Source: a virus. From it: a stretch of 56,907 bases of DNA. Below, one piece after another: positions 26,995 through 53,375 of this stretch; positions within the stretch are counted from its first letter, which is position 1; every line of letters begins with the position of its first letter. The notes beneath the pieces were generated by a model that saw only the letters and a list, made by a program, of their open reading frames with translations, was not told the origin of the DNA and did not search any database. The stretch covers positions 1 through 56,907 of the IMG/VR virus record IMGVR_UViG_3300021373_003004, one strand, 5' to 3'. The position numbers and the translations under genes were made by a program.

Positions 26995-27483
26995 ATGGCT
27001 TATTCTGGCAAATACAAAGTCAAACATCGTAGTAAGTATAAAGGTGATGTAGACAATGTAGTGTATCGATCAATGTGGGAAAGAAACGCGTTTAAATGGT
27101 GCGATAACAATTCTAACATAAAGTATTGGTCGTCAGAAGAAGTCGTCATACCATATTTATGGGAGATAGATAAAAAGTATCATAGATATTTTATGGATCT
27201 CAAGATTACATACAAAGATGGAAGAACAATTCTTGTAGAGATAAAGCCTGACAAAGAGACTAAACCTCCAAAGAAACCCGATAAGTCGAAGCGTTATATC
27301 AGCGAGGCTATGACTTATGTGAAGAATCAAAACAAATGGAAAGCTGCACAGTCATATGCTAAGGATAGGGGCTGGGACTTCCAGATCTGGACAGAACATA
27401 CTCTTGAAAAAATGGGCATAAATCCAAAGCAAATTAAACCATTGAAACCACTTAAACCTTATAAGAAGAAAACTAGAAAATGA
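26995..27483 (+). CDS. 4: Head completion protein gp4 (gp50/gp4)
   Basis: A 162-residue protein (T4 gp4 is 150 aa) that aligns along its length. MAYSGKYKVKHRSKYKGDVD matches T4 'MAYSGKWVPKNISKYRGDP', VYRSMWERNAFKWCDNN matches 'TYRSNWEKFFFEWLDKN', RYFMDL and VEIKPDKETKPPKKP match 'RYFMDI' and 'IEIKPKKETQPPVKP', and NKWKAAQSYAKDRGWDFQIW matches 'DKWKAAQSLAEKRGIKFRIL'. The family joins filled heads to tails and has a TnsA-like nuclease fold, with candidate residues D, E and K in FMDL...VEIK. Its stop overlaps the start of the sulfotransferase gene (ATGA). Confidence 0.93.
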   Translation: MAYSGKYKVKHRSKYKGDVDNVVYRSMWERNAFKWCDNNSNIKYWSSEEVVIPYLWEIDKKYHRYFMDLKITYKDGRTILVEIKPDKETKPPKKPDKSKRYISEAMTYVKNQNKWKAAQSYAKDRGWDFQIWTEHTLEKMGINPKQIKPLKPLKPYKKKTRK

Positions 27484-28076
27484 CAGTGATTACTACAAAA
27501 CCTACAGGTACATTTATTCATATTCCTAAAAATGCTGGTGTTGCTATTAGTCAATGGCTAACACATAACGTTCATGGATCATATCTTTTTAAACAACAAC
27601 ATGGCGGTAAGCATGCACATCAAAAAAGAATTAAAAAGTGGATGGATGCAGACCAACGCCAAATGGATATGGGATTTACTTTTTGTGTAGTAAGAAATCC
27701 ATGGGCAAGAGTTGTAAGTGCATATCATTATTATGTACGTAGAAATCAAACAAGCGGTGGTCAATACGGAATTGATCCACTTAAAACATCATGGGAAGAA
27801 TTTGCAAACCGTGAATGGGAACATGGTAAGTGGGGTTGTGTACATAAACAACAAGTAACATATTATGATAAAGTAGATTATATCTTGAGATTTGAGAACT
27901 TAGACAAAGACTTTCTAAAGATTCAGGACATGTACAATTGCTATAAACCATTGTTCCCTGCTAATCAATCAAAACACAAGGACTATCGTAAATACTACAC
28001 AAATCCACGCTGGATTGATGATGTAGCAGAACACTATAAAGACGACATTAAGGAGTTCGGATATTCCTTTGAATAG
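27480..28076 (+). CDS. Sulfotransferase-family protein (Sulfotransfer_2 type)
   Basis: A 198-residue protein. The start FIHIPKNAGVAISQWL is the 5'-phosphosulfate (PAPS) binding loop of the Sulfotransfer_2 family (consensus IPKxAG), and FCVVRNPWARVVSAYHYY is the second PAPS motif (RNPxxRxxSxY). Such enzymes move sulfate from PAPS to sugar hydroxyls. The gene is inserted between gp4 and a conserved virion-cluster gene and overlaps the gp4 stop by 4 bases, so it is made late with structural proteins. A second copy type lies at 47571-48281. The substrate cannot be read; a glycan is likely. Confidence 0.82.
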   Translation: MTVITTKPTGTFIHIPKNAGVAISQWLTHNVHGSYLFKQQHGGKHAHQKRIKKWMDADQRQMDMGFTFCVVRNPWARVVSAYHYYVRRNQTSGGQYGIDPLKTSWEEFANREWEHGKWGCVHKQQVTYYDKVDYILRFENLDKDFLKIQDMYNCYKPLFPANQSKHKDYRKYYTNPRWIDDVAEHYKDDIKEFGYSFE

Positions 28077-28090: not shown

Positions 28091-28675
28091 ATGAGTAACT
28101 TATTTAACAACTTAGAATTAGAAGCATTCAGGGCCGGTATTACGCCTAGAACACGGGAATCACGTGAGTGGTTTCGTCGTCGTGTTTCTAGTATGCGTGG
28201 TATAAATCGTAATGCTCTGATGAGAGAAGAACCGGTCGAACTTGATAATGATAGCGTTGTAGGTAACATGTATATGTTCTTCTACGATCCTAAACTAAAG
28301 AAAGAACTACCATACTATGATAGCTTCCCATTAGTTATTGTAATTGGTCCAGCAGAGGGTGGTTTTCTTGGTTTAAATTTACACTATCTACCACCGTTAC
28401 TTCGCGCTAAGTTTTTAGATGCATTATTAGATTATACAAATAATAAGAGATATGATAAATCGACTAGATTTCGTTTATCATATAACTTGCTCAAAAGAGC
28501 TGCAAAGATGAAGTACTTTAAACCATGTGTCAAACATTATTTAAATGAACATGTAAGAAGTAGATTCGCAAAGGTTCCGGCACCAGAATGGGAAATCGCT
28601 ACATTCCTGCCGACTGCTGACTTCCAGAAATCTAGCAGAAATAAAGTTTATAGCGATTCTAGGAGAATGATCTAA
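28091..28675 (+). CDS. Conserved T4-like phage protein of unknown function
   Basis: A 194-residue protein starting MSNLFNNLELEAFRAGITPR. A basic N-terminus (RTRESREWFRRRVSSM) is followed by YMFFYDPKLKKELPYYDSFP and GFLGLNLHYLPPLLRAKFLD, a pattern I recall from T4-like phages without a secure function. It lies between gp4/sulfotransferase and a tail-tube-fold gene, and its stop overlaps that gene's start (TAATG). By position it could be a DNA-end or tail-assembly factor. No membrane or catalytic motif is visible. Confidence 0.65.
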   Translation: MSNLFNNLELEAFRAGITPRTRESREWFRRRVSSMRGINRNALMREEPVELDNDSVVGNMYMFFYDPKLKKELPYYDSFPLVIVIGPAEGGFLGLNLHYLPPLLRAKFLDALLDYTNNKRYDKSTRFRLSYNLLKRAAKMKYFKPCVKHYLNEHVRSRFAKVPAPEWEIATFLPTADFQKSSRNKVYSDSRRMI

Positions 28676-29280
28676 TGCTTGGTGTTGATGATTTTAAGAG
28701 TTTAGTATCAAATAAAGGTGGAATAGCCAGAGCAAATTTATTCTCTGTCTCTTTACCTGGACTACCTGGGATCGCTACTAATGAAGAGATGAATCTTTTG
28801 TGCAAAGACGTCTCTTTACCTGGAAGACAGGTAACTACACGTGAGAGAACTATTGGACTTACTACTCGTAAAATGGCTTATGGTTATTTAATTGATGATG
28901 TGTCCATGACATTCCATGTGTTAAATGACTATGGCGTCAAAGAATATTTTGAAACTTGGCAAAATCTAGCTGTTGATCAGAATACATATGAGATTGGCTA
29001 CAAAAAAGACTATTCATTTGATGTAAAAATTAATCAAATAAAGAAAGGCACCGGTCAGGGTGTGACTTCTACAAATCAGCTTTCGTCAGATGAGATAATT
29101 TATTCTTGTGTTCTTGAAGAAGCATTTCCAACGACTATGAATTCTATTCAATTAAATAACGAGCTAGATGGAATTTTAGAGCTAAATGTTCAGTTATCAT
29201 ACACTAACTGGAGATCAGCTGTCACAAGTCAAGAAACAATTAACACAATCAATGGAAGTCTTATATCACTATTTTTATAA
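28675..29280 (+). CDS. Tail-tube-fold protein (gp19/gp54-like)
   Basis: A 201-residue protein. GGIARANLFSVSLPGLPG matches the start of T4 gp19 ('DFARPNLFQVEI'). The middle has CKDVSLPGRQ parallel to 'CKATALPAG', then MTFHVLNDYGVKEYFETWQN parallel to 'VTVMNDEAHDARQKFVDWQ', and the end ELNVQLSYTNW parallels 'FEFTVAYDYW'. It therefore has the tail-tube fold. Its place beside gp26 and the tape measure suggests a tube initiator or hub-proximal tube protein rather than the main gp19, which normally sits beside the sheath gene. Confidence 0.78.
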   Translation: MLGVDDFKSLVSNKGGIARANLFSVSLPGLPGIATNEEMNLLCKDVSLPGRQVTTRERTIGLTTRKMAYGYLIDDVSMTFHVLNDYGVKEYFETWQNLAVDQNTYEIGYKKDYSFDVKINQIKKGTGQGVTSTNQLSSDEIIYSCVLEEAFPTTMNSIQLNNELDGILELNVQLSYTNWRSAVTSQETINTINGSLISLFL

Positions 29281-29296
29281 TTAAGGATGAAATGAA

Positions 29297-30007
29297 ATGG
29301 CATTACCTAAGCTAAATGATAAACCAAAGTACGAAGTTGTTATACCTTCTACACAAAAAAATGTTAGATTTAGACCTTATCTCGTAAAAGAAGAGAAAGT
29401 TCTAATGATGGCAATGGAAAGTAAAAACCAAAAGCAAATGTTAGAAGCTGTAGTAGACACTATTACTGCGTGCATTGATGAACCTGTTCAAAAAAATAGT
29501 CTAACTATATTTGACGTTGAATATTTGTTTACTCAAATTAGATCTAAATCAGTAGGTGAAACCGCGACAGTTGGATTAAAGTGTAATAAATGTGAGCACA
29601 CAAATGAGGTGCAAATTAAATTAGATAATATTAAAGTCGATATGAAAAAAACAAATGACGTTATTGATTTAGGCAGTAATGTAAAACTAAAAATGCAATA
29701 TCCAAAATATCATAATGTTATAAACACAGAATCATTACAAGAAGACACATCGACTACAAAACAAACGTTTGATATGATTGTGCAGTGTATTGATAGTGTA
29801 CAAACAGAGGAAGATAATATTAAGATCAGTGATGAACCTTATGAAGATGTCATGGCGTTTATTGAGTCATTGAATACTAAGCAATTTACAAAGATTAGAG
29901 AATTTGTTGAAAATATGCCAAAGTTAAAACATGAAGTCAATTATACATGTGAAAAATGTAACCATAAAAATGATGTTGTGTTGGAAGGTATGAACGATTT
30001 TTTCTAG
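29297..30007 (+). CDS. 26: Baseplate hub/tail assembly chaperone gp26, zero-frame product
   Basis: A 236-residue protein of the T4 gp26 family (T4 gp26 is 208 aa): LPKLNDKPKYEVVIPSTQKN, VRFRPYLVKEEKVLMMAMES, then VVDTITACIDEP and VEYLFTQIRSKSVGE. Two Cys pairs (CNKCEHTN near residue 98 and CEKCNHKN near 221) could bind one zinc. The last codons are GAT TTT TTC TAG, forming the slippery heptamer T TTT TTC right before the stop. A -1 shift there continues into a 64-residue tail-assembly extension. The gene directly precedes the tape measure, the layout of lambda G/GT/H. A ribosome site AAGGATGAAATGAA precedes the ATG. Confidence 0.88.
   Translation: MALPKLNDKPKYEVVIPSTQKNVRFRPYLVKEEKVLMMAMESKNQKQMLEAVVDTITACIDEPVQKNSLTIFDVEYLFTQIRSKSVGETATVGLKCNKCEHTNEVQIKLDNIKVDMKKTNDVIDLGSNVKLKMQYPKYHNVINTESLQEDTSTTKQTFDMIVQCIDSVQTEEDNIKISDEPYEDVMAFIESLNTKQFTKIREFVENMPKLKHEVNYTCEKCNHKNDVVLEGMNDFF
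29998..30004 (+). promoter_or_regulatory. Slippery heptamer for -1 ribosomal frameshifting
   Basis: T TTT TTC (29998-30004) fits X XXY YYZ in the gp26 reading frame and is followed at once by the zero-frame stop TAG (30005-30007). Slipping back one base reads TTT TTT CTA GTA and continues open for 62 further codons. Confidence 0.75.
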
Positions 30008-30195
30008 TAGCTCTATCTCATGATAGCTTAGTGAATTATTATAGAACGAACTTTCAGTTAATGCAACACCATCACTATTCGTTACATGAGATAGAGCAAA
30101 TGATACCTTGGGAAAGGGAAATCTATATTGTTATGTTGATGGAATATATTAAAGAAGAAAACCAAAAAGCAGAACAGCAAAGGCTTGCAAGATGA
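30001..30195 (+). CDS. -1 frame extension of gp26 (tail assembly chaperone, T-like part)
   Basis: Read one base back from the gp26 frame, the sequence gives LVALSHDSLVNYYRTNFQLM then QHHHYSLHEIEQMIPWEREI and YIVMLMEYIKEENQKAEQQR before TGA at 30193-30195. The phrase 'HEIEQMIPWEREIYI' is typical of proteins found between gp26 and the tape measure in related phages. There is no ATG with a ribosome site at its beginning (only GTG at 30031 and ATG at 30061), so a -1 shift is the likely route, giving a ~299-residue fusion. Its end overlaps the tape-measure start by 4 bases. Confidence 0.72.
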   Translation, partial: FLVALSHDSLVNYYRTNFQLMQHHHYSLHEIEQMIPWEREIYIVMLMEYIKEENQKAEQQRLAR

Positions 30196-31826
30196 CTACA
30201 TTAACTGAAGTTACTGAACAGTTAGAAGAGAATAAAGAAGCTACAGAAGATACAACTGATGCTGTCAGTCGACTAAGTAATTCTATAGACAAATTTATTC
30301 TCAATATCGATAGATCCCAATTCGACAAGCTGGAGGGTATCAGCGAAAGTAGTGGTGGACTGCAGTCAACTACACAATCAGGGGCAGGTACTAGTGCTGA
30401 TGAGAAGACTGGTGGAGGCATATTTGGAGGCTTGTTGAAGGCATTAGGGATAACTGGTATCTTTCAGGGGATAACAAGAGCTTTAGCGCCAATACTAGCT
30501 CCTATAGCAGCATTATATACTTTATTAAAGGGACCAAAGTTACTAAAGACACTTGGTATTTTTGGCTTAATGTATGAAATATTTAAAGATATAGGTGAGA
30601 ACGAAGCATTACAAAATACATTACAAAAGATCACTGATCTATGGAATAACAGCATGTTGCCCTCGTTAAGGGCAATAGGTGATAGCGTTTTAAATTTTGT
30701 TAATTCAATTGATGCTACTACAGAATTTAAAAGCCTTTCAGAGTGGTGGCAGAATATTAGAACTACACTACAAGATTTTGTAGCTTTTACTTTAGAGGAT
30801 ATAGCTATAGCTATTGATGGTGTTTTGACGGGTATAAAAACTACACTAGATGGTGATTGGAAAAATGGTATAGCAAAAATAATCAATAGTGTGTTGATTG
30901 GAATTCAAGATATAGCGGATAATGCTATTACAGCCGTTCTCAACTTATTTGGTGTAGATTTTGGAGAGGATGGTACGTTTTTAGGTTATTTAGACAGAAA
31001 GTGGGCTGAACTAAAAACTTCTATTCAAACAAAATGGGATGCAGGGGTAACTGCTATAACAAATGGTTGGAATGCCACTATTGACGCTGTCACTAATACA
31101 TGGACAAGTGTTACAACAGCCATAACAAATGGTTGGCAATCTATTGTAGATTTTTTTACTATCTCAATACCAGCTAAATTTAAAGGCATTAAATTACAAA
31201 TTATAGCTATAGCCGAAGGGATTGTTACATCTGTAGTTGATGCAGCTACTAGTATGATTGAAGTTATTACAGTAGATATACCCAATAAAATAGGTGAAGC
31301 AAAAGATGCCATCATAGAAAAGGCAGCTGGCTTATATGATGCTGTGTTAACAAAAGTTAATTCTCTCATTGCATCTATTGTTGATTTAATACCATCTGGT
31401 GCAGATATAAAAAATGGTATAATTAATGCTATTAAAGCATTACCTGGTGGCGAAGCTTTACTAGATATGATAGGTCTTAGCTATGAGCCCGCACCTAAAA
31501 AAATGAATACGGACGCCGATTTCTTTGAACAAGAAATAAAAACAAATAAGGGTATGTCAATAAACCCCAGGGGTTATACGGGAGCTCAATCATTTGGTAC
31601 GGCTTACACTTCCAATCCTGGACAAAGGTTTAGTGAATTAATGTCATTTAGACAACCAGCTGGAACTAGTTCTGCGCCAGTTATTGTACAAGATAACAGT
31701 GTAAAACAAGGTGGTAGTAGTACTCAAGTTATTAACCAGATGTCGCAACCTGTGAGCTCTATGGATCTTTCTGCTATGATGAGAAATCAGGGTGTTAGAT
31801 TTGGTCATGGACCATATGGTTATTAA
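30192..31826 (+). CDS. 29: Tail tape-measure protein (gp29-like)
   Basis: A 544-residue protein (T4 gp29 is 590 aa). It has a polar helical N-terminus, a Gly-rich hinge, hydrophobic helices (GGLLKALGITGIFQGITRAL, LAPILAPIAALYTLLKGPKL), then a long helical body with tryptophan-containing repeats (KWDAGVTAITNGWNATIDAV, TNTWTSVTTAITNGWQSIVD). These features are typical of tape measures, which set tail length and may form a channel in the inner membrane. It follows the frameshifting chaperone gene with a 4-base overlap and ends just before a strong terminator. Confidence 0.85.
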   Translation: MTTLTEVTEQLEENKEATEDTTDAVSRLSNSIDKFILNIDRSQFDKLEGISESSGGLQSTTQSGAGTSADEKTGGGIFGGLLKALGITGIFQGITRALAPILAPIAALYTLLKGPKLLKTLGIFGLMYEIFKDIGENEALQNTLQKITDLWNNSMLPSLRAIGDSVLNFVNSIDATTEFKSLSEWWQNIRTTLQDFVAFTLEDIAIAIDGVLTGIKTTLDGDWKNGIAKIINSVLIGIQDIADNAITAVLNLFGVDFGEDGTFLGYLDRKWAELKTSIQTKWDAGVTAITNGWNATIDAVTNTWTSVTTAITNGWQSIVDFFTISIPAKFKGIKLQIIAIAEGIVTSVVDAATSMIEVITVDIPNKIGEAKDAIIEKAAGLYDAVLTKVNSLIASIVDLIPSGADIKNGIINAIKALPGGEALLDMIGLSYEPAPKKMNTDADFFEQEIKTNKGMSINPRGYTGAQSFGTAYTSNPGQRFSELMSFRQPAGTSSAPVIVQDNSVKQGGSSTQVINQMSQPVSSMDLSAMMRNQGVRFGHGPYGY

Positions 31827-42749: not shown

Positions 42750-43352
42750 CTACTTTTTTGTGTAAATTTCTACATTCTCTGGAACATCAAACTTGATCTT
42801 GTCATGTTTATGGTGTAGTACAAACTTTGTCTGATGACTAAACTCTTCAAAGATACCTTTCCAGATAGGTCTCCAATTGTCATTGAGTCTTACATTATTT
42901 GTAGCACCTCTGTCAGAGTTGAGGTAAAAGTCAGTACAACTACGTAAGTTCATGTCGAATAGACTATCAAATCCATATAGGTGCATTTCGTCAGGTTTGA
43001 AAGATGTGGCTGCATAGTGGGCTGCAAAGTGCCCACAGTTAAAGTCTGTATAATTGCGTACATATTTAGGTAGAGTGAGATAGAACTGTCTAATCTTTTG
43101 AGCATGTTTCATATAGAACTGAGGTCTCATCTCACACCATTTCTTAGGCCTATAACCTACCACCCAAGGTCCTGGTACCTCTACGCTACCTTCATTGATA
43201 GCAGCCATCATTTTAAAGTCTACAATACATGTAGCATATGCATCTTGTACTGGAAATGGTGGAAGATTACACGTAAGCTTGACTCCTTTTGAGCCTTGTT
43301 TGTACATAGTGGCGTTATCACCATTACCAATCAAATGAAGTACTTTAGTCAT
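42750..43352 (-). CDS. Unknown protein of the glycan cluster, possibly Rossmann-type sugar enzyme
   Basis: A 200-residue protein starting MTKVLHLIGNGDNATMYKQG. The glycine-rich start (LIGNGDNA) and the phrase NCGHFAAHYAATSFKPDEMH then LYGFDSLFD recall the DUF115/sialyltransferase-like fold (a GHxxA helix and an LxGxD strand), but I cannot confirm it. It is the last gene of the glycosyltransferase run, its ATG overlapping the previous stop. Probably a glycan-related enzyme by company. Confidence 0.55.
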   Translation of the reverse strand: MTKVLHLIGNGDNATMYKQGSKGVKLTCNLPPFPVQDAYATCIVDFKMMAAINEGSVEVPGPWVVGYRPKKWCEMRPQFYMKHAQKIRQFYLTLPKYVRNYTDFNCGHFAAHYAATSFKPDEMHLYGFDSLFDMNLRSCTDFYLNSDRGATNNVRLNDNWRPIWKGIFEEFSHQTKFVLHHKHDKIKFDVPENVEIYTKK

Positions 43353-43993
43353 AATTTACCTGCTATTTTATCCTTAATTCTATCCTTACCCTTTTTACCG
43401 GTCCAATGCATAACAAGTTTATCTTTGCTATCCTCGTTATCATTCTCTAACTGCACTCTTAACCAGTTGTACTTATTCGGAATCTCTGTTATGTTTATCA
43501 TTTTATCAAGTGGTGTAGGAAGCATAGCATGTAGTGTTTCTTGATCCCCACGTTTTGGATTATGCTGAACCTCATTCATCCATTTCCGTAATATTTCAGG
43601 TTTTCCTTTTACACCTACGACGCCAGAGTTATGCCACTCTTCTCCACTACGTTTAGACCATGGTCTGTCAATAGCCATAGCAATTTTACCAGGTTCGATA
43701 TAGTCAAAAACACCACTAATATCACCAAGCACTTCACAATCAGTATCGATCCATACGGTTGTTGGTGATGGACTATGATACAACGCATATGGTTTCAAGA
43801 ACCAGCCACCAACTTTAGTGTCTTTAATTTGTAAGAATAAGTCAAAGCACTTGGTGTGCTGCATCCAAGCAATAGTTGCTTGGTCTACACCAAAGTCACA
43901 GAAACAAATTGGTGTGTCATTATGTTTTCTATAGTTTTCAATAAACCATGGTAACATCCAAACTTGGCTTTGGTCACAGCCAGTCATGAACAT
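43349..43993 (-). CDS. GT8-like glycosyltransferase
   Basis: A 214-residue protein. MFMTGCDQSQVWMLPWFIEN followed by TTVWIDTDCEVLGD gives a DxD motif for metal and nucleotide sugar, and EEWHNSGVVGVKG and MHWTGKKGKDR match the acceptor and C-terminal pieces of GT-A enzymes of the GT8 kind. ATG 43991-43993 is chosen because it follows the upstream stop directly; in-frame ATGs at 44026 and 44083 would overlap that gene. Substrate unknown. Confidence 0.72.
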   Translation of the reverse strand: MFMTGCDQSQVWMLPWFIENYRKHNDTPICFCDFGVDQATIAWMQHTKCFDLFLQIKDTKVGGWFLKPYALYHSPSPTTVWIDTDCEVLGDISGVFDYIEPGKIAMAIDRPWSKRSGEEWHNSGVVGVKGKPEILRKWMNEVQHNPKRGDQETLHAMLPTPLDKMINITEIPNKYNWLRVQLENDNEDSKDKLVMHWTGKKGKDRIKDKIAGKL

Positions 43994-43994
43994 T

Positions 43995-44648
43995 TTAGTG
44001 TGCTTCTTCGATCCTGTAGGTTTCATTATAACTGTGCTTAGCGAAGCACCCTTCCTTTTTTTGAATAGTAGTGAAGTTATCACGGGCTTCTACAGGCCAA
44101 GGATAATACTCTTGTAGGCCTGGAAATGTATGAATGTTTAGAAATACATCTGTTGGTTTAGCAGCTTTCTTTGCTTGATAGATGAGCTGCTCTGCTCCTT
44201 TGGGTGATACACGGTATGCGTGCGCACCGGGAAAATAAGGTTTAGATACTAAAGGTCCAACACCTAATCGTGTTGGAGTGTTAAATTTACCATATGATGG
44301 TTTACCAAAACTAATACACTGATTAAACGGTACATCAGGTATTTGGTCAACTATCACAGCGTCATGTTCAAATATGGTTATTGTATCACTGGTGTCAACG
44401 GCGCGCTTCCATAAGCTATAATGAGAGAGAAAAGCAGCAACACAATTAGATAAGCGAGAATATTTTTCTTTGAATCCATCAAAATCAATTCCTTCATTTT
44501 TCATCATTCTATTAAGATCTGTGTTATGTGGTGTAATGGCTTCAAAAAACTTGATATCCATTCCATATTTAGCGCCAGATCTGATTGTACGTTCAGCTAC
44601 ATTTACTGAACGTGGATTATTCACTATTGTTATAACATAATTTTTCAT
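43995..44648 (-). CDS. GT25-like glycosyltransferase
   Basis: A 217-residue protein from ATG 44646-44648 (MKNYVITIVNNPRSVNVAER), overlapping the upstream stop as ATGA. It shows the family order: FFEAITPHNTD, then AAFLSHYSLWKRAVD, then ITIFEHDAVIVDQ (the acidic GT25-type motif, with Phe for Leu), then GAHAYRVSPKGAEQLIY near the C-terminus. It is one of five relatives in the window. The acceptor is unknown. Confidence 0.75.
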   Translation of the reverse strand: MKNYVITIVNNPRSVNVAERTIRSGAKYGMDIKFFEAITPHNTDLNRMMKNEGIDFDGFKEKYSRLSNCVAAFLSHYSLWKRAVDTSDTITIFEHDAVIVDQIPDVPFNQCISFGKPSYGKFNTPTRLGVGPLVSKPYFPGAHAYRVSPKGAEQLIYQAKKAAKPTDVFLNIHTFPGLQEYYPWPVEARDNFTTIQKKEGCFAKHSYNETYRIEEAH

Positions 44649-45415
44649 GATGTAGTTGTTGACGGTGTCCCTTGTAATGTTGTATAATAAGGATAGGCTT
44701 GTTCTAACCATGGAAAAAACTGCTTACACATTAAAGCATCATTTGGCCACAAACCTACGGTTGATAGTTGATATAACAAATGTTGGGCTGCTTCTGGTTT
44801 AATTATGTATGCTGAATTACCAGCGATACCTTGAGGAATAGACTCGTCATCTATCCATGGAGCAGGTGCGATACCATTTAGTGCTGTCTCAACAACGCGT
44901 TCATGATATAAAGCTGATTTTCTAGTTGCACCTCTTGGATCATTCAATCCTAATACTCCACCATCAAACCCTCGTTCACCACGTAAGATATTCATAATAT
45001 CAAATGTTCTAGTGAATAAAGCATCATGTTCTAGTACGACAATCGCTTCTTTAATTTCTACACAAAATCTCCAAGCTCTCATATGTGATACTAAACAGGC
45101 TGCAACTTTAGTGTAATCTGTAGCTCTATAACCTGTCAATTTCATACCGCTTGAATGCAATACAGTTTCAGCTGGAGATTTTGGATATGACCAATCTAAT
45201 AAATTAAAACCGAAAGTGTCTAAATCTCTAACTAAAGTAGATGGTGTAGTCGCATCCATTAAAAGCGGCGTTAAAAAAGATTCAGTATTCTTAATAGATT
45301 GTATACATCTACGCGCGCCAACTGTTGAAGCATGGTCATTAATCATTGTAATAATAAGCGCTTTGGGTTGTCTCCTATAAAGCGCCTTTTGTGTTAATGC
45401 AGGAATATCACTCAT
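44645..45415 (-). CDS. GT25-like glycosyltransferase
   Basis: A 256-residue protein. PKALIITMINDHASTVGARR starts the fold, MDATTPST is the family's A-x-T-P element, AACLVSHMRAWRFCVEIKEA precedes IVVLEHDALFTRTF, and NSAYIIKPEAAQHLLYQL forms the C-terminal helix. All elements match the other GT25-like genes in order and spacing. It overlaps both neighbours by 4 bases. Confidence 0.75.
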   Translation of the reverse strand: MSDIPALTQKALYRRQPKALIITMINDHASTVGARRCIQSIKNTESFLTPLLMDATTPSTLVRDLDTFGFNLLDWSYPKSPAETVLHSSGMKLTGYRATDYTKVAACLVSHMRAWRFCVEIKEAIVVLEHDALFTRTFDIMNILRGERGFDGGVLGLNDPRGATRKSALYHERVVETALNGIAPAPWIDDESIPQGIAGNSAYIIKPEAAQHLLYQLSTVGLWPNDALMCKQFFPWLEQAYPYYTTLQGTPSTTTS

Positions 45416-45690
45416 ATCCTGTTCCTCCGGTCTGATAGCTTCTGTCTGATCACTTCCTCACGCTCTTTCTCCCACCAACCAGCATCATAATTATTTTTAT
45501 ATTGCCTTAGTTTAGCGTCCATCTTTTTAGCCATTTGATATGCTTCATCTAGTTTAGCTGTTAAATCGGCATAATGAGGATTCAATCTCAAGTTGTTATA
45601 CATTATGTCATACATTTCTCTGTGTACTTCACAAATAGTTCGGCCGAACTTGTCTTTGTAGACTTCATTAAAAACAGTTTTATCGTTCAT
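45412..45690 (-). CDS. Small charged protein inside the glycosyltransferase run
   Basis: A 92-residue protein (MNDKTVFNEVYKDKFGRTIC, then DLTAKLDEAYQMAKKMDAKL), helical and highly charged, ending with KEREEVIRQKLSDRRNRI. It overlaps its neighbours by 4 bases on both sides. A chance TATAAATA box at 45773-45780 lies inside the upstream gene. Function unknown; it could be an accessory subunit. Confidence 0.62.
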   Translation of the reverse strand: MNDKTVFNEVYKDKFGRTICEVHREMYDIMYNNLRLNPHYADLTAKLDEAYQMAKKMDAKLRQYKNNYDAGWWEKEREEVIRQKLSDRRNRI

Positions 45691-46382
45691 TTGAATCCCT
45701 TGCTTGTACTCATATTTGGACCAGAAAAATTGAAATATTGCGGGTCTGCATATTCTATATTTACATTTTTACTATTTATAAAGAAATCACTCTGATCCCA
45801 TCCGTTTGCCCACATTGAATCTAAAAGTCTGCTAGCCCCCTTTGGTGTAATAGCATATGCTGCAGTACCTGGAATCAAATAACCATTTTTAAAATCATTA
45901 TCTTTCCAGTATTTTAAAGAGGATACTAAAGGTCTAACTGTTGTCTGCTCATCTTTATATATGTATGAATAAGCATGCTTCTTCCAAAGGTTCTTATTGT
46001 GCCTAAATGCAGCGTCTAAATTTAAGACAAGAACCTCATCAAATTCAGGATAATCATATTCTCTTACACATATAGCGTCATGCTCTAGAAACGTCATAGG
46101 TTCATTAGCAGCTGCAACCCTTTCCCAAAATAATACGTGGTTAAAGAAGCATGACTTCTTTGTGTGGTACATAGGTTGCTGTTCAGTTTCATATGCATAA
46201 GCTCTACTATTTGGTACAGGTTTAATAGGATATAGATCCTCAATATAACTTAAGCTTGCAGGTGTAATGCCACCCACAAGTTCTGCATCCATTATACCAA
46301 ACTTTTCACAGCTTTGTAAACAGTTTTTTGCAGCCTCACGCGATTTAGCATGAGATTCTATGTAGATAATGTTTGCTTTCAT
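45687..46382 (-). CDS. GT25-like glycosyltransferase
   Basis: A 231-residue protein. IIYIESHAKSREAAKNCLQS, ELVGGITPASL, CFFNHVLFWERVAAAN, PMTFLEHDAICVREYD and GTAAYAITPKGASRLLDSM follow the same order as in the other GT25-like genes. The helix before the acidic motif reads N-H-x-x-F-W instead of S-H-x-x-L-W. It overlaps the methyltransferase gene upstream (ATGA). Confidence 0.75.
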   Translation of the reverse strand: MKANIIYIESHAKSREAAKNCLQSCEKFGIMDAELVGGITPASLSYIEDLYPIKPVPNSRAYAYETEQQPMYHTKKSCFFNHVLFWERVAAANEPMTFLEHDAICVREYDYPEFDEVLVLNLDAAFRHNKNLWKKHAYSYIYKDEQTTVRPLVSSLKYWKDNDFKNGYLIPGTAAYAITPKGASRLLDSMWANGWDQSDFFINSKNVNIEYADPQYFNFSGPNMSTSKGFK

Positions 46383-46954
46383 TTTCTCATAATAACAGTT
46401 GAGATAAGATAGTATAAATCTTTTTTTCTTTTAAATTTTTTAGCTAATGAAATAAACTTAGGACTACGTCTATCATCTGGATTATCTATCATATGTTTAA
46501 TCATTAAATCGTTACCAGCTTTATGAGTCCATACTCTTTCATTATAACCAGCAGATTCAGCCATTGATATTAGTCCATCAATAGTAAATCTAAAATAATC
46601 ACCAGGCCAATCATGAACCTGATAAATAAATGGTGCAGAAAATATAGCAATGCCACCTGGTTTTAAAACACGATAAGTTTCTTCAACACAGAGCCAAGGT
46701 CTTTTAGTATGCTCTAATACTTGAAACATAACTACACAATCATATGTGTTGTCTTCATATGGTAAGTCTTCACAATCAATTTCAGGAAACGTAGTTGAGG
46801 TACAATTACTAAAATGTTTTTGAATAACTTCGGTATTACCACTAATCTCTAATAGTTTATTCCTTTCAAAACTCGTATTAGTTTTAAAGAACCTTTCTAG
46901 TGCAGCAGTATATTCTATTCTTGTTGCTTTAGGCTTGTATTTCCTTTCGCTCAT
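46379..46954 (-). CDS. Class I SAM methyltransferase (Methyltransf_11 type)
   Basis: A 191-residue protein from ATG 46952-46954, which overlaps the upstream stop. Motifs seen: LEISGNTEVIQKHF (weak motif I), DLPYEDNTYDCVVMFQVLEH (motif IV, the typical FDxVxxxxVLEH), VLKPGGIAIFSAPFIYQVHD (post-motif strand). The pattern is that of small methyltransferases acting on sugars or small molecules. It lies between a GT25-like gene and a second methyltransferase. Confidence 0.8.
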   Translation of the reverse strand: MSERKYKPKATRIEYTAALERFFKTNTSFERNKLLEISGNTEVIQKHFSNCTSTTFPEIDCEDLPYEDNTYDCVVMFQVLEHTKRPWLCVEETYRVLKPGGIAIFSAPFIYQVHDWPGDYFRFTIDGLISMAESAGYNERVWTHKAGNDLMIKHMIDNPDDRRSPKFISLAKKFKRKKDLYYLISTVIMRK

Positions 46955-47574
46955 GGAAGCTTGATACTCCATTGAACATTTCCATGAGCGCTTAAATTTA
47001 AGCTGCGCTGTGATACAAATTCATTCACAGCCTTTTTAACACCACCCTTATCTGCAGTCAAACTATTCCATTTATAATCATCACCAATAATGTAACCACC
47101 AGGATTTACAACTTCAATAGCGTTGTTTAAATCATTCTTTACACCAGTATATGAATGATCTCCATCAATATAAATCCAATCTAGTTTTTCACCGGTTTTC
47201 TTAAACTCTTTAAACCATTCAGTCGCGGTTTGTCTGCAGATGACAGCCTCTTCAAACTTTGAAAACTTTTTAACAACACCGTTATAAATTTTATCATAGT
47301 AATCTGCAAAGTCAGCTGGATGTTTAGAACCAACAATTTTTTGATACTTGTTGTAAATATTTGTTAAGCTAATAGTAGGATCATTTACTTGAAAAGCTTC
47401 ATCGTATCCAGACAAAGACCATGCATCTACCATATAGAATTTGCTGAGTCCTTTTTTTAAAAACTTTTCTGAAGAACTTCCTTTCCACACGCCAATTTCA
47501 GCTCCAACAGTTCCAGATTTAATTAGATGTAAAATTTTATCTGAGTCTTTATTGACTCCTGCATTTGCCATCAT
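46951..47574 (-). CDS. SAM methyltransferase (Methyltransf_24 type)
   Basis: A 207-residue protein from ATG 47572-47574 (MMANAGVNKDSDKI), with its A overlapping the sulfotransferase stop. GTVGAEIGVWKGSSSEKFL is motif I, FYMVDAWSLSGYDE is motif II, DWIYIDGDHSYTGVKNDLNN with VNPGGYIIGDDY is the IDGDHSY signature of the Methyltransf_24 family. These often methylate sugar hydroxyls or sugar-linked groups; a metal may be bound by the two Asp. Substrate unknown. Confidence 0.82.
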   Translation of the reverse strand: MMANAGVNKDSDKILHLIKSGTVGAEIGVWKGSSSEKFLKKGLSKFYMVDAWSLSGYDEAFQVNDPTISLTNIYNKYQKIVGSKHPADFADYYDKIYNGVVKKFSKFEEAVICRQTATEWFKEFKKTGEKLDWIYIDGDHSYTGVKNDLNNAIEVVNPGGYIIGDDYKWNSLTADKGGVKKAVNEFVSQRSLNLSAHGNVQWSIKLP

Positions 47575-48281
47575 ATCGCTGTTCTCCACGCATTTTCTGA
47601 CCAATAGTTTTTAGTAGCACCTGTATCAAAATCAAAACCCCAGGTTTCAATATCTTTCTTATACCAGTCAGCTACAATCTGAATAGTCTTTTCGTTATAT
47701 AGATCCTTGTAAGATCCTTTATTTAATCCTGTTACATTACGTGCACGTGTCATTGATGGAAGTTTAAAGTACATACAAAGATCTTGATTTAGATTTTCGA
47801 ATCTCATAATATCACATTTGATGTTACCGTTCTTATCTGTGACATAATCGTAAGCTGGATACCAACCACGAATAGCACGATGCCACATGTATTCCATATT
47901 ACCCCATTGTTCTCGCTCTTCTAGGAAATGTTCAAATGAGTCTAGCTTATACTTACCAATTGGCGCATCAGCTTTCTTTTCAACAAACGTAGTCTTTCGA
48001 GCAAAGAAGTAGCGTGACACGACACGATCCCATGGATTACGAACAATAGCAAATGCGTCATAGGCATTAGTTAGTTTTGGTGATAAGTCACACCATCTTG
48101 CGTGTTCAAAACCATGATGGTCACCGATTAGATCCATATGCTTCTTAACAGCCATTGTATATTCTTTTGACTTATGAGCCTTAGGTCCTGCAGGAATAAT
48201 CCTTTCACGTAACAAATCACTATTACGAACAGTCATACCCGCATTCTTTGGGATGTGTATAAAAATTTTAGGTAGAAACAT
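47571..48281 (-). CDS. Sulfotransferase-family protein (Sulfotransfer_2 type)
   Basis: A 236-residue protein. KIFIHIPKNAGMTVRNSDLL is the PAPS-binding loop and AFAIVRNPWDRVVSRYFFAR the second PAPS motif. A catalytic His may be in DHHGFEHARW. The C-terminal region (CDIMRFENLNQDL, then IQIVADWYKKDIETWGFDF) matches the other copy at 27480-28076 (ILRFENLDKDF, VAEHYKDDIKEFGYSF), so the two are related. It sits among glycosyltransferases and methyltransferases, so a glycan acceptor is likely. Confidence 0.82.
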   Translation of the reverse strand: MFLPKIFIHIPKNAGMTVRNSDLLRERIIPAGPKAHKSKEYTMAVKKHMDLIGDHHGFEHARWCDLSPKLTNAYDAFAIVRNPWDRVVSRYFFARKTTFVEKKADAPIGKYKLDSFEHFLEEREQWGNMEYMWHRAIRGWYPAYDYVTDKNGNIKCDIMRFENLNQDLCMYFKLPSMTRARNVTGLNKGSYKDLYNEKTIQIVADWYKKDIETWGFDFDTGATKNYWSENAWRTAI

Positions 48282-48786
48282 TTTCTTCTTTCTTCTTCAA
48301 TAAAACCATTGTATGTTCAGATGCAACTACATCATAAAATTCAAGCACTCTATCATACCGCGGTCTTTTATTCTTTCCATAGTCATGGATAAACACAAAG
48401 CTATCATCTCTAATATTATCTAGTATGGACTCAGCAACCCATTGTCTGGCTCTTCCGTCAATCAATACCACATCAAAGATAGTATCCTGTGTCTTTGGCC
48501 AATTGATATAATCAACAAACCATTCATATTTAGCAGGTTTTAATTTTTCCTTTTTTGGAATGACATTAGGTGGAACATGAAAGTACTTAATATTAGGTAG
48601 ATGTTTAATATCATTACTTACTTTATTATACCACTTTGCATCATGCTCAACTGAATAAAGAGTTCGTACATGACCAGATATAATTGATGTACTACGTCCT
48701 GAACCATATTCTAACATAATTTGGTCCTTATGTAAATAGGATTGTAAGAACTCCCATTCATTTGGTTTCATTAATGGTATAATCAT
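48268..48786 (-). CDS. SAM-methyltransferase-fold protein
   Basis: A 172-residue protein. QIMLEYGSGRSTSIISG is a motif I-like loop (ExGSGxST), LYSVEHDAKWYNKVS is motif II, and FDVVLIDGRARQWVAESILD with SFVFIHDYGKNK fits motif IV and the following strand. Similar short proteins are encoded in polysaccharide loci and may be methyltransferases or their relatives. It overlaps the upstream glycosyltransferase by 4 bases and the sulfotransferase by 14. Confidence 0.7.
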   Translation of the reverse strand: MIIPLMKPNEWEFLQSYLHKDQIMLEYGSGRSTSIISGHVRTLYSVEHDAKWYNKVSNDIKHLPNIKYFHVPPNVIPKKEKLKPAKYEWFVDYINWPKTQDTIFDVVLIDGRARQWVAESILDNIRDDSFVFIHDYGKNKRPRYDRVLEFYDVVASEHTMVLLKKKEENVST

Positions 48787-49571
48787 ATTTTTTCCATAAG
48801 CTCCCTGACGTTCTCTCCACCATCGGGTAGATGGTCCTTTAAGAAGAAGTGGACAAAGTGTGCTTCAGGAATTTTATCATCATGGACTGCCGTGTACAAT
48901 GCATTCCATTTCCAATCCAGTCGTTGTACTGGTATCTTCTTTTTCTTAAACCAATAGTTGAGTGTAATTTGATCTGACTGCCATTTAAACGGACCTTTAC
49001 CGTTAATAAGATCCATAAGCATAGGTTGCTGTAAAAACTCTTTTGGAGACATTCCATTGAGAGCTGCTAACATTAATTTACTATTATATAACATGACACC
49101 AGAGTTAAAGAAACCAAAGCCAGTTCTCATATTATAGTCATCCCACTCAATCGGTAGGGCTGATACCATACGAGAATACGCTGATATTTTTTTAGCGTAT
49201 GCGTCATTGATTGGTAGGTCAGCTTCATACACACTAGCAACCGCTCTGTCAAATGCTAAGTCATCAAAAATATCAGGGGCATCAGGTCTAATATAAATGT
49301 CTGCATCAATTACACAACATGCATCATAGTCGTTGAAATAGTTAAAGACATTTTCTTTTTCAAAGATTGGCATATAGCCAAGTCTTTTCCAACCACCAGT
49401 CTTACCCTCACGCTCATTCATAAATGGATCAGGTGCTAAACGAATAATAGGACCAATTTGTAATTTATAGTCAGCACCAATGCGTTTAGCATATGCCTCA
49501 ACAGATGAAGTACAGTGCTCGTATAGTTTACTTTGTTGACCGATAGCTACTTGGTAAATTAACTTTTTCAT
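48783..49571 (-). CDS. GT-A glycosyltransferase, tandem copy A
   Basis: A 262-residue protein. KKLIYQVAIGQQSKLYEHCT, then PIFEKENVFNYFNDYDACCV and IDADIYIRPDAPDIFDD give a DAD metal/nucleotide motif; GFFNSGVMLYNSKLM and WQSDQITLNYWF are the acceptor-side pieces seen in GT8/GT34-like enzymes. It is clearly a duplicate of the next gene upstream (49568-50359), sharing start, DxD region and end (HFFLKDHLPDGGENVRELM). Acceptor and donor unknown. Confidence 0.75.
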   Translation of the reverse strand: MKKLIYQVAIGQQSKLYEHCTSSVEAYAKRIGADYKLQIGPIIRLAPDPFMNEREGKTGGWKRLGYMPIFEKENVFNYFNDYDACCVIDADIYIRPDAPDIFDDLAFDRAVASVYEADLPINDAYAKKISAYSRMVSALPIEWDDYNMRTGFGFFNSGVMLYNSKLMLAALNGMSPKEFLQQPMLMDLINGKGPFKWQSDQITLNYWFKKKKIPVQRLDWKWNALYTAVHDDKIPEAHFVHFFLKDHLPDGGENVRELMEKI

Positions 49572-50359
49572 ATCAGCCCCATTAATTGTTGTACATTCTC
49601 ACCTGAATTTGGCAATTTTTGTTTTAAAAAGAAATGAACAAAGTTACACTCTTTAATTTTGGTATTGGCAGTAAACAAACCATTCCACTTCCAATGAAGA
49701 TCGTGAACTTTCATGTTTTCTTCTTTAATCCAAACATTAAGTAGAGTCTGGTCAGTAGACCATTTCCAATTACCTAATCCATCAATGAACGGTTTAAATC
49801 TTGGTCTAGACAAAAACTGATGAGGTGTTTCACCATTGAGATAATTTTCTAATGATTTGTTAAGCATCATTACACCCATATTACGGAACTCAGCACCACA
49901 ACCACTCGGATGTTTCCAGTCAAATAGCTTGTTGATGGGGGACATGCCATACTGCTCTCGAGAGTAGTTCGAAATCTTTTTCTTATATTGTGGGGTTATT
50001 GGCATGTCACGTTCAATAGATGCAGCAAAGTCTACTTTAGTTCCTACTTCTTCAAATATAGAATCGTTACACTCCGGACGAATATAAACGTCAGCATCAA
50101 TAACAGCTACCTGATCGTATGTACGCAAATACGTAAATGCATTTTCCTTCTCAAAGATTGGAAGGAATCCACCATACTGCTCCCATGCTCTGGGGTTTCT
50201 ATTTGTTTGAAAAACATCAGGTTTAATCATGAGAATAGGCTGTCGCTGTTGGATATATTCCGCGCCTATTCTTTCTGCATATTCTGCTACACTATAAGTA
50301 CAATGATCGTATAGTTTAGATCTCTTGCCCGTGTATACCTGGTATATCAATCTTTTCAT
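49568..50359 (-). CDS. GT-A glycosyltransferase, tandem copy B
   Basis: A 263-residue protein that parallels the neighbouring gene throughout: KRLIYQVYTGKRSKLYDHCT, PIFEKENAFTYLRTYDQVAV, IDADVYIRPECNDS (DxD), FRNMGVMMLNKSLENYL, WSTDQTLLNVWI and the end HFFLKQKLPNSGENVQQLM. The Asn of the copy A motif FFNSGVM becomes RNMGVM here, a possible change in acceptor choice. It overlaps its neighbours by 4 and 44 bases. Confidence 0.75.
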   Translation of the reverse strand: MKRLIYQVYTGKRSKLYDHCTYSVAEYAERIGAEYIQQRQPILMIKPDVFQTNRNPRAWEQYGGFLPIFEKENAFTYLRTYDQVAVIDADVYIRPECNDSIFEEVGTKVDFAASIERDMPITPQYKKKISNYSREQYGMSPINKLFDWKHPSGCGAEFRNMGVMMLNKSLENYLNGETPHQFLSRPRFKPFIDGLGNWKWSTDQTLLNVWIKEENMKVHDLHWKWNGLFTANTKIKECNFVHFFLKQKLPNSGENVQQLMGLI

Positions 50360-50981
50360 AATCTAGTCCTACATAATTTCTATATGGAGATTTATGGTCT
50401 ATCGTATTTAATCCATCAATATTTATTTGCTCTATATAATGATAATCATTATTTTGTAGTTGTTTAGCAATATTTAAAAGAGCTCCCAAGTGTCCATCGC
50501 TATTTTGTTTTATTTCTTTACTTACTGCATGGGCTATTAATCTTTGAGCTACTAAAGGAGTAATATAATAACCAGAACCAGGAGCTAAATGCACACCTTG
50601 AGATTTTTTATCTCCGTAGTCTCTGTTAATAAATGATAAAAATTTATGTCCTTCTTTCGATAAATCAGGTAATGGTTTAATTAGTTTTGAATCATGTTCT
50701 AAAATCAAAATAGGACGTCTGGTTGTAAGACAACGGCACCATAATTCAAAGTGACTATACCATACAGATTTTTCTGTTGCTGTAAAATCCCGATCACCTT
50801 TTTTTCCAAATTCTAATTTATGTTTTTTGTATAAATCTTTTGGAGTTATAGCTTTAAATTTTTTAATGTTATGATTATGTTTTCTCCAACTATTATACAC
50901 CATCCTAGAATACATTAAAGAAACAGGATGATCTTCCATTAATATTTGGTATATGTCATAATTTTGTTGTATATTTTTCAT
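50316..50981 (-). CDS. GT25-like glycosyltransferase
   Basis: A 221-residue protein. KKFKAITPKDLYKKHKLEFG, VWYSHFELWCRCLTTRRP and ILILEHDSKLIKPLPDL match the other GT25-like genes (Ser replaces Ala after LEHD), and GSGYYITPLVAQRLIAHAV forms the C-terminal helix. It is most like the plus-strand copy at 37578 (both have L-x-F-G-x-x-G after the TP element). The end overlaps copy B of the tandem pair by 44 bases and the start overlaps the gene upstream by 26. Confidence 0.75.
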   Translation of the reverse strand: MKNIQQNYDIYQILMEDHPVSLMYSRMVYNSWRKHNHNIKKFKAITPKDLYKKHKLEFGKKGDRDFTATEKSVWYSHFELWCRCLTTRRPILILEHDSKLIKPLPDLSKEGHKFLSFINRDYGDKKSQGVHLAPGSGYYITPLVAQRLIAHAVSKEIKQNSDGHLGALLNIAKQLQNNDYHYIEQINIDGLNTIDHKSPYRNYVGLDYEKIDIPGIHGQEI

Positions 50982-51597
50982 CAGTACTAAACATTATGTC
51001 AAAATTAGTTGTCAAATTCGGTATTACTCCGTTATTATAAAACTCTTTATAAACGTTTTCTGCTTTGCCCCAATGATGAATTACTTTGTTTAAATCTAAG
51101 TTATGGCCAGCCAGAATATATCTAGCACGTTCTATACTTGTATTCCAAAAACTTGGACTGGCTAACATGCCATTTCTCATATCTGGATAACTTTCATGAA
51201 TCTTAAAAACATTTACATCATAATTCAAAAAATCTGCTGGGATATCTTTTTGTATAACTGTGTCAAATGGAATAAATATCGAATGGCTTCTCAATCTTCT
51301 AAGCTTTCTAGCTAAAGTCCAAAAGTCTATAAAAAACCTCATGGCTTGAGTTTTATATTTAGCAGAGTTTCCCTCTATTTCTTTAAAATTATCATCAACT
51401 ATCAGTCCAATTCTCAATTCTTCTTTAAGAAGCGTTCTTATGCGGGTGGATCTGTTATATGATTCTTGAAATTTAAAATTAGTAAAACCATATCTTTCCC
51501 ATTCAGCTTTATTTTTAATCGCTATTTCTTTTTCATAGTCATCAGCGTGATTAACGGTACAGTATATAGGAATATCTCTTGGTATAAATTCTGTCAT
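50956..51597 (-). CDS. Unknown protein of the glycan cluster
   Basis: A 213-residue protein (MTEFIPRDIPIYCTVNHADD) with KYKTQAMRFFIDFWTLARKL, HSIFIPFDTVIQKDIPADFL and a C-terminal part FDIMFSTDEKYTTKL. The strand IFIPFDTVIQKD resembles the acidic strand of GT-A glycosyltransferases but lacks a clear DxD. Its ATG overlaps the radical SAM stop. It may be a divergent glycosyltransferase; low certainty. Confidence 0.55.
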   Translation of the reverse strand: MTEFIPRDIPIYCTVNHADDYEKEIAIKNKAEWERYGFTNFKFQESYNRSTRIRTLLKEELRIGLIVDDNFKEIEGNSAKYKTQAMRFFIDFWTLARKLRRLRSHSIFIPFDTVIQKDIPADFLNYDVNVFKIHESYPDMRNGMLASPSFWNTSIERARYILAGHNLDLNKVIHHWGKAENVYKEFYNNGVIPNLTTNFDIMFSTDEKYTTKL

Positions 51598-52553
51598 CTG
51601 TAGTCATCCAAGTTAAAGTTTGTGCCATGCATTTTATAAAGATCTCTTTCATGGTTTGTATAAACTAATACTTCAGGATCATCAATTAAGAAGTCACAAT
51701 CATTACAATAAGCCGGCCAGTTGCCCATCTCATGATCTTTACGTAGCTGATTGTATTTATCACCGTACCAAATTTCTTCTAGTGTATTCTTAGACAAATG
51801 TCCGAGGACTGCTTCGTCATCACGTCCGAGCACTTGACAGCATGGGTGAACAGCACCCAAGTTACCGTCAATACCGCCAGCGCGTATAACGACATCAGGG
51901 GAAAAAGGACGACCACAGGTTTTTCTAGCACCTTGTCTTTCATAGTTAGCATCATATACTCCACTCCAATTGTGCATCTTCCAAATCTCAGTCTTAACCC
52001 CTGCACCATCAACAATCTTACGATATTGTTCTACCTCATAATCAATATTGTCATTGTCAAGAATCAAATGATATGTGGCCACCACACAATCTGATAGTGT
52101 AGCATAAGCATACGCCGCAGTTTCTTCAAGATTAGACTTAACTGTGTTGAATGAACTATTATTCATCCATTTACGATAAGTCTCTTCGTTATAACCAATC
52201 ATTGAGAACCGGATAAAATCAGCACCAGCATCAATAACATCATGCATGAACTGACCTGACATGCGATTACCATTTGTAAACATAAATGCCTTAGCACCAT
52301 ACTTCTTTACAATTGCTACATATTCAGGTAAGTTACTATTTAAGGTTGGTTCGCCAGATCCCTCTAGATTTACAACATTTAATCCAGCCTCTGCACATTG
52401 AGCTACATAGTCTTCAAACACGTCTAGGGGCATCTTCTTCAACCAATTTTTACCACGTGCACCCGTAGTACCGTCAGGATTTGTCTGAGGACACATCTGA
52501 CACGTATAGTTACAGCCGCCATTAATTTCTATTACTGCGCGATCAATATGCAT
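51594..52553 (-). CDS. Radical SAM/SPASM enzyme
   Basis: A 319-residue protein. GGCNYTCQMCPQTNP holds the CxxxCxxC cluster (Cys14, 18, 21), NLEGSGEPTLNSN is the GGEP-type SAM-binding motif, and ADFIRFSMIGYNEETYRKWM is a barrel strand. The C-terminal region has Cys at TCGRPF, HPCCQVLG and YCNDCDF, typical of a SPASM domain with extra iron-sulfur clusters. Such enzymes modify peptides, sugars or cofactors by radical chemistry. It lies in the glycan cluster, so a sugar or peptide target is possible. A second, damaged relative may be at 56472-56907. Confidence 0.85.
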   Translation of the reverse strand: MHIDRAVIEINGGCNYTCQMCPQTNPDGTTGARGKNWLKKMPLDVFEDYVAQCAEAGLNVVNLEGSGEPTLNSNLPEYVAIVKKYGAKAFMFTNGNRMSGQFMHDVIDAGADFIRFSMIGYNEETYRKWMNNSSFNTVKSNLEETAAYAYATLSDCVVATYHLILDNDNIDYEVEQYRKIVDGAGVKTEIWKMHNWSGVYDANYERQGARKTCGRPFSPDVVIRAGGIDGNLGAVHPCCQVLGRDDEAVLGHLSKNTLEEIWYGDKYNQLRKDHEMGNWPAYCNDCDFLIDDPEVLVYTNHERDLYKMHGTNFNLDDYR

Positions 52554-53375
52554 TTACCATCCATTCACAAATTTATTAAAGATTTTTTTATACGCGTAAG
52601 CTTTTTCTTGAGCTGCTTCAATTGTATAGTATATTTTACTTAAATCCCTATCTATGAAAAAATCTCCATCTTTTATCCACACTGCTGCCGGGGTGTGCCA
52701 TTTAGTTATACTACTATCACTAAAGACGACGTGTGGTTTAAAAAAATTCTTAGCTATATAATGCCACATTCCTTCATAAGATATACAGCACTCACATGTT
52801 CTTATGTGATACATAGCATCACTTACCGGAGTTCTATAACATAATTCCGTAACTTCATAGCCAAAATCTTTTAATCTATCTATTATCCTTTGCCATTCAT
52901 GATCTAGCATAGGTAGTTTGTAACCAGATAATTGTTGTTTAGCATTGAAGGTTGGTCTCCATATTACTATTTTATTTGGTATGGTTTTTACCTGAATAGT
53001 AGGATCAAATGACCAATATCTATATAATTCAGACTTTGGTTTTCTTGTAATTCCTTCATAAAACTTTTTATACAAAGCTGTGTCAGTACTATTAAATATC
53101 GGTTCAACATGAACCATGTCTGGCCACATATATCTTTTTCTTACATATTCAAATCTATCATAGACAGATTCAGGATCTTCATAATGATAATTTAAATCTT
53201 TGTCATGGAAAAAATGTATTTGAAACTTTGTAGGTTTTTGATTAACAAACGCCCGCATGAAAGCGATGTTTAAACCATACATTGAATCACCGATACCTGG
53301 TGTGGTTTTCCATCTTATAGTGTCTAAACCATAATTATCTTTCCAGTTTGCTACCCAGTGGTTCCATAAGTCCAT
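52554..53375 (-). CDS. GT-B (GT9/heptosyltransferase-like) protein
   Basis: A 273-residue protein from ATG 53373-53375; the longer reading would need a TTG start. TTPGIGDSMYGLNIAFMRAF starts a Rossmann-like half (GxGDxxYxxP-like), NKIVIWRPTFNAK begins the second half, GYEVTELCYRTPVSDAMYHI and SYEGMWHYIAKNFFKPHVVF resemble the heptosyltransferase C-terminal site (a gap-free signature 'GMxHxAxxxxxPxVxxF'). GT9 enzymes add sugars in LPS core. It overlaps the small upstream gene by 41 bases. Confidence 0.65.
   Translation of the reverse strand: MDLWNHWVANWKDNYGLDTIRWKTTPGIGDSMYGLNIAFMRAFVNQKPTKFQIHFFHDKDLNYHYEDPESVYDRFEYVRKRYMWPDMVHVEPIFNSTDTALYKKFYEGITRKPKSELYRYWSFDPTIQVKTIPNKIVIWRPTFNAKQQLSGYKLPMLDHEWQRIIDRLKDFGYEVTELCYRTPVSDAMYHIRTCECCISYEGMWHYIAKNFFKPHVVFSDSSITKWHTPAAVWIKDGDFFIDRDLSKIYYTIEAAQEKAYAYKKIFNKFVNGW

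What the first reader, a model, noticed from the sequence alone, without database searches (positions are those of the whole stretch)
29998..30195. Programmed -1 frameshift in gp26 producing a tail-assembly chaperone fusion
The gp26 frame ends GAT TTT TTC TAG. T TTT TTC is a canonical slippery heptamer directly before the stop, and the -1 frame stays open for a 64-residue tail ending with a 4-base overlap onto the tape measure. This mirrors lambda G/GT before H. T4 gp26 is not usually described as frameshifted, so this would link T4-like hub genes to the general chaperone strategy.
Basis: partly seen in the sequence, partly recalled or inferred. Interest (0 to 1): 0.75.

Follow-up and report, generated by a model that had tools for sequence, protein, structure and literature searches.

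The report
Frameshifted tail-assembly chaperone of T4-like phage
A marine T4-like virus very probably makes a short and a long version of its tail-assembly helper protein from one gene, by having some ribosomes slip back one base at a run of six Ts; the signal is real and deeply conserved, but this kind of system is already published for T4-like phages.

Summary
The gp26 homologue (29297-30007) ends GAT TTT TTC TAG. The slippery heptamer T TTT TTC (29998-30004) is in phase, and the -1 frame is open for 63 residues to 30195, overlapping the tape-measure start by four bases (ATGA). In all 76 IMG/VR relatives that include the gp26 end, and in 15 reference phages, T TTT TTN sits 0-2 codons before the stop with a 56-69 residue -1 extension. 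The extension is the homologue of T4 gp51's C-terminal part (phrog_634, E=1.5e-26) and is under purifying selection even upstream of any possible start codon. T4 gp51 is itself a gp26-like domain with that extension fused in frame. T4, Aeromonas phage 25 and Serratia X20 carry two gp26-family genes and no heptamer; every heptamer phage examined carries one. So gp26 and the fusion match lambda G/GT. The window also has a perfect 13-bp stem five bases after the heptamer, a plausible stimulator confined to a few lineages. The idea is not new: Vladimirov, Gautam & Davidson (2022) identified the T4-like tail assembly chaperone genes, and a 2025 paper credits them with polyT slippery sites. New member of a known kind; frameshifting is inferred, not measured.

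The parts
29297..30007 (+). gp26 homologue, short chaperone form (TAC-N / lambda G-like), 236 aa
   Evidence: PF12322 E=9.4e-64; phrog_150 E=7.2e-67; hhalign with T4 gp26 98.2% probability, E=4.5e-14
29998..30004 (+). slippery heptamer T TTT TTC in zero-frame phase
   Evidence: Sequence; T TTT TTN in all 86 analysed loci, 45 of them below 80% nt identity to one another
30005..30007 (+). zero-frame TAG stop directly after the heptamer
   Evidence: a stop 0-2 codons after the heptamer in relatives
30004..30195 (+). -1-frame extension, 63 aa plus stop (TAC-C / lambda T-like; gp51 C-terminal homologue); first -1 codon CTA at 30004-30006
   Evidence: phrog_634 'baseplate hub assembly catalyst' E=1.5e-26; pN/pS about 0.27
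30010..30022 (+). 5' arm of a perfect 13-bp RNA stem starting 5 nt after the heptamer; putative frameshift stimulator
   Evidence: MFE -30.0 kcal/mol, z -5.4; same helix with two compensated pairs in L023/L058
30085..30097 (+). 3' arm of the 13-bp stem
30192..31826 (+). downstream gene, probable tape-measure protein, overlapping the extension stop by ATGA
   Evidence: several tape-measure PHROGs, best E=1.9e-13
28675..29280 (+). upstream tail tube gene (context)
   Evidence: phrog_45 E=5.6e-36

Best explanation
One gene encodes two tail-assembly chaperones. Most ribosomes stop at TAG 30005-30007 and make the 236-residue gp26-like short form. A minority slip back one base on T TTT TTC, helped by a stem five bases downstream, and continue for 63 residues to make a gp26-gp51C fusion of 299 residues. 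By analogy with lambda G and GT, the two forms together would coat the tape-measure protein encoded immediately downstream and help assemble the tail. In T4 itself the same two products appear to come from two paralogous genes, 26 (short) and 51 (long). Shown here: the sequence elements, their conservation, the homologies and the copy-number pattern. Inferred: that slipping occurs, its efficiency, the stem's role, and the chaperone function.
For: In-phase T TTT TTN in 86 of 86 loci, 45 of them below 80% nt identity; no other T TTT TTN among 10,547 codon positions of their gp26 genes; preceding codon always ends in T and P-site Phe is always TTT although about 62% and 64% would be expected. -1 extension open for 60-69 codons in every IMG/VR locus whose contig continues. 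Also present in Kyanoviridae, Emdodecavirus, Pootjesviridae, Menderavirus, Mylasvirus and Ceceduovirus, Desulfovibrio 7757 and Pseudoalteromonas XG4. The extension is protein-like: pN/pS 0.27 over codons 1-17, and 0.27 in the ten representatives that have no ATG/GTG/TTG from the preceding -1 stop to codon 16. Extension hits the gp51 family. T4 gp51 hits PF12322 over residues 1-201 (E=3.9e-52) and phrog_634 over 147-246. Two family copies in T4, Aeromonas 25 and Serratia X20; one in each of the other 22 records. Stem.
Against: No protein or reporter data. The stem is absent from most relatives, so it is not a general part of the system. Structural similarity to a solved chaperone is weak: HK97 2ob9 has the highest Foldseek probability of the listed matches (0.38) but E=2.1. 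The 86 loci are phylogenetically related, so the joint codon probability (2.7e-21) overstates independence. Some relatives have a start codon early in the -1 frame.
Confidence: 0.93

Rival explanations
1. The C-terminal part is a separate small gene (gp51) started from its own codon, as GenBank records annotate it; the heptamer is incidental.
For: Many records annotate a separate 'baseplate hub assembly catalyst' ORF. In nt-1, D482, P10VF and Ps15 an ATG lies two codons after the slip site. The window has a GTG at 30031.
Against: Protein-level conservation starts directly at the slip site, before any start codon, including in ten representatives with no upstream start. First starts fall at unrelated positions (codons 0 to 32). 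The window GTG has no Shine-Dalgarno-like sequence before it and would drop the conserved LSHD segment. The rival does not explain the invariant heptamer.
Confidence: 0.04
2. The extra frame is reached by RNA-polymerase slippage on the T run rather than by ribosomal slipping.
For: In some relatives the heptamer TTTTTTT is followed by TAG/TAA, giving an 8-T run.
Against: In the window and in 23 of 45 representatives the run is only six Ts, ended by C, G or A. Phase is fixed relative to the codons, and the window has a stem at the usual -1 frameshift spacing. Six-base runs are short for transcriptional slippage (general knowledge).
Confidence: 0.02
3. The short form is the only functional product and the extension is a decaying remnant of a once-fused gene.
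For: T4 gp51 shows that a fused ancestor is possible.
Against: The -1 frame is open in every relative whose contig continues and is under comparable purifying selection in both halves of the extension.
Confidence: 0.01

Closest known systems
T4-like phage tail assembly chaperones (Vladimirov, Gautam & Davidson, Virology 2022;566:9-15, pmid 34826709)
   Same: [quoted passage not shown] PRFect (PMC10885494) cites it for some T4-like phages having one short and one long fused gene instead of frameshifting. PMC12846349 cites it for polyT -1 slippery sites in T4-like short-form genes.
   Different: The paper is not held here, so I could not check whether it covers this uncultured lineage. The downstream stem and the pattern in Ackermannviridae reported here may or may not be in it.
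Lambda gpG/gpGT and the conserved dsDNA-phage tail chaperone frameshift (Xu, Hendrix & Duda 2004)
   Same: Short form plus a -1 frameshifted long form, just upstream of the tape measure.
   Different: No sequence relation was tested or shown; the heptamer and the proteins differ (lambda details from general knowledge).
T4 genes 26 and 51
   Same: Homologous short protein (gp26) and long protein (gp51 = gp26-like domain plus the same C-terminal extension).
   Different: Two separate divergently transcribed genes, no heptamer, long form fused in frame.
Vandenendeviridae/Andersonviridae chaperone locus (phage Adele, PMC12846349)
   Same: -1 frameshift with a conserved T-rich motif (GTTTTT) and an always-open -1 frame, argued by the same logic.
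   Different: A different phage family and a different motif.

Membership tests
Frameshifted tail assembly chaperone (G/GT type) | Gene directly upstream of the tape-measure gene | tested here: met
   30192-31826 matches several tape-measure PHROGs, best E=1.9e-13
[quoted passage not shown]
   T TTT TTC at 29998-30004; 86/86 loci
Frameshifted tail assembly chaperone (G/GT type) | Conserved open extension in the shifted frame | tested here: met
   63 codons; pN/pS 0.25-0.27
Frameshifted tail assembly chaperone (G/GT type) | Fold similar to solved tail chaperones | tested here: inconclusive
   AlphaFold2 model pLDDT 89.4; HK97 chaperone 2ob9 prob 0.38, E=2.1
Frameshifted tail assembly chaperone (G/GT type) | Both protein forms made at a set ratio | not testable with these tools
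   needs proteomics or a reporter
Frameshifted tail assembly chaperone (G/GT type) | Binds the tape-measure protein and is absent from virions | not testable with these tools
   needs biochemistry
T4 gp26 family (PF12322) | Score over the Pfam gathering cut-off | tested here: met
   215.5 bits against a cut-off of 24.5
T4 gp51 C-terminal family (phrog_634) | Extension matches the profile | tested here: met
   E=1.5e-26, profile positions 58-116 of 121
Two-gene (T4-type) chaperone arrangement | Second gp26-family gene in the genome | tested here: not met
   One match in the 56.9-kb record, which may be a fragment

The most novel reading that the evidence does not exclude
Across T4-like phages the short and long chaperones are produced in three exchangeable ways: one gene with a slippery heptamer and, in some lineages, a separately gained stimulatory stem; gene duplication with an in-frame long copy (T4 group); and, in Ackermannviridae-like phages that have one copy and no heptamer, some other route such as restart at the TAATG stop-start overlap, making the C-part a separate protein.
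Probability: 0.3. Interest if true: 0.45.

Novelty: new member of a known kind. Interest (0 to 1): 0.33.

Why it matters
It supports reading the long-puzzling T4 hub proteins gp26 and gp51 ('assembly catalyst') as the short and long tail chaperones. It also shows that in this survey most T4-like phages outside the T4 group carry the signals to make the long form by frameshifting, while the database records examined here annotate the C-part as a separate gene or leave it out. The published work already made the central link, so the added value is a wider sequence test and a better annotation rule.

Tried and rejected
RNAalifold on 90 nt downstream of the heptamer in 25 marine loci predicted no pairs; that stretch also cut off the end of the window's 3' arm. 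The stem is not conserved: the window's pairing is met at 49% of cells in the other marine representatives, within the range of slid controls. An upstream Shine-Dalgarno-like stimulator (GAAGG, 9 nt before the heptamer) was considered, but it coincides with a glycine codon conserved in all 45 representatives and its codon choice shows no clear preference (GGT 17, GGA 15, GGG 8, GGC 5), so it is undecided. A sequence search of solved structures with the gp26 alignment found nothing. The Vladimirov paper itself is not in the library. No held paper combines 'cyanophage', 'baseplate hub' and 'ribosomal frameshift'.

Full report
Observation. The window's gp26 homologue spans 29297-30007 and ends GAT TTT TTC TAG. 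The heptamer T TTT TTC (29998-30004) lies in the zero-frame phase needed for tandem -1 slippage. The -1 frame runs 63 residues beyond it to TGA at 30193-30195, overlapping the next ATG as ATGA. The window holds 28 TTTTTTC, close to chance. Yet among 57 ORFs of at least 120 aa, this is the only one with an in-phase heptamer within ten codons of the stop followed by a long -1 extension.

Identity of the parts. The short protein belongs to PF12322 / phrog_150, the T4 gp26 family. The extension matches phrog_634, 'baseplate hub assembly catalyst' (gp51), E=1.5e-26, and more weakly the end of phrog_150. The upstream genes are head closure, a sulfotransferase, DNA end protector and tail tube. The downstream gene resembles tape-measure proteins.

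Conservation. Of 80 IMG/VR loci, all 76 examined that contain the gp26 end carry T TTT TTN followed by a stop at once or after one serine codon. The -1 frame is open for 60-69 codons wherever the contig continues. Fifteen reference phages with a heptamer (cyanophages, a pelagiphage, a methylophilales phage, and Sinorhizobium, Rhizobium, Stenotrophomonas, Aeromonas AP1 and Vibrio phages) show the same with 56-66 codons. Two distant phages without annotation do too. In 86 loci combined, 45 below 80% nt identity, the codon before is always NNT and the P-site Phe always TTT. Elsewhere in those genes T-ending synonyms make up about 62% and TTT about 64%, and no second T TTT TTN occurs in 10,547 positions. 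The loci are related, so the joint figure of 2.7e-21 is only an indication.

Own start codon? pN/pS in the -1 frame is 0.27 for codons 1-17 and 0.25 for codons 18-45. Ten representatives have no ATG, GTG or TTG from the preceding -1 stop up to codon 16, and the value there is again 0.27. Selection on protein sequence upstream of any start requires entry from gp26. In the window the first start is GTG 30031, nine codons in.

T4 itself. T4 genes 26 (minus strand) and 51 (plus strand) diverge. gp51 matches PF12322 over residues 1-201 (E=3.9e-52) and phrog_634 over 147-246 (E=1.2e-23), so it is a gp26-like domain with the extension fused in frame; gp26 is the short form. Direct comparison of gp51 with gp26 gives 20% identity, E=2e-6; the marine gp26 profile aligns with both. 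Aeromonas 25 and Serratia X20 have the same arrangement. Counting PF12322 genes in 25 records: those three have two copies and the other 22 have one. All of the 22 carry the heptamer except Limestone1, MK-13 and Vibrio K448, where the C-part begins at a TAATG overlap.

Stimulator. Five bases after the heptamer the window has a perfect 13-bp stem (30010-30022 with 30085-30097), -30.0 kcal/mol, z -5.4. Only 4 of 2285 windows of similar G+C in the record fold as well. Loci L023 and L058, in another part of the gp26 tree, have a 12-bp helix in the same register with two compensated pairs (C-G to G-C, T-A to C-G). Most relatives lack it. It is therefore a lineage-specific helper at most.

Structure. 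AlphaFold2 gives a confident gp26 model (pLDDT 89.4). Against the PDB nothing is significant; the HK97 tail assembly chaperone 2ob9 has the highest Foldseek probability of the listed matches (0.38), over 62 columns. This is suggestive only.

Prior work. [quoted passage not shown] I could not read it. PRFect reports from it that some T4-like phages carry a short and a long fused gene instead of frameshifting. The phage Adele paper cites it for polyT slippery signals in T4-like short-form genes. From memory, its abstract states that frameshifting is conserved in several T4-like groups and that T4 uses genes 26 and 51. The finding is thus a well-supported new member of a known kind. What remains open is direct proof of frameshifting, the role of the lineage-specific stem, and the arrangement in Ackermannviridae.

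Noticed in passing
L095:1620-1800, L096:1611-1791, L094:1588-1800 (Dickeya Limestone1, Shigella MK-13, Vibrio K448): One gp26-family gene but no slippery heptamer; the C-part starts at a TAATG stop-start overlap, so another way of making it is likely.
   Followed up: partly
27480-28076: A sulfotransferase-like gene (PF03567 E=1.3e-8) sits between the head-closure and DNA end-protector genes.
   Followed up: no
- strand, heptamer at about 42759: An in-phase AAAAAAG directly before the stop of the ORF at 42750-43352; the -1 frame extends only 9 codons.
   Followed up: no
43349-54166, - strand: A long run of ORFs in a T4-like phage; by eye several look like glycosyltransferases, methyltransferases, a second sulfotransferase and a radical-SAM-like protein. 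No family search was run on them.
   Followed up: no
L083, L085, L100 and other reference records: None of the records examined annotates the fusion: the C-part is either a separate ORF with an internal start or not annotated at all.
   Followed up: partly
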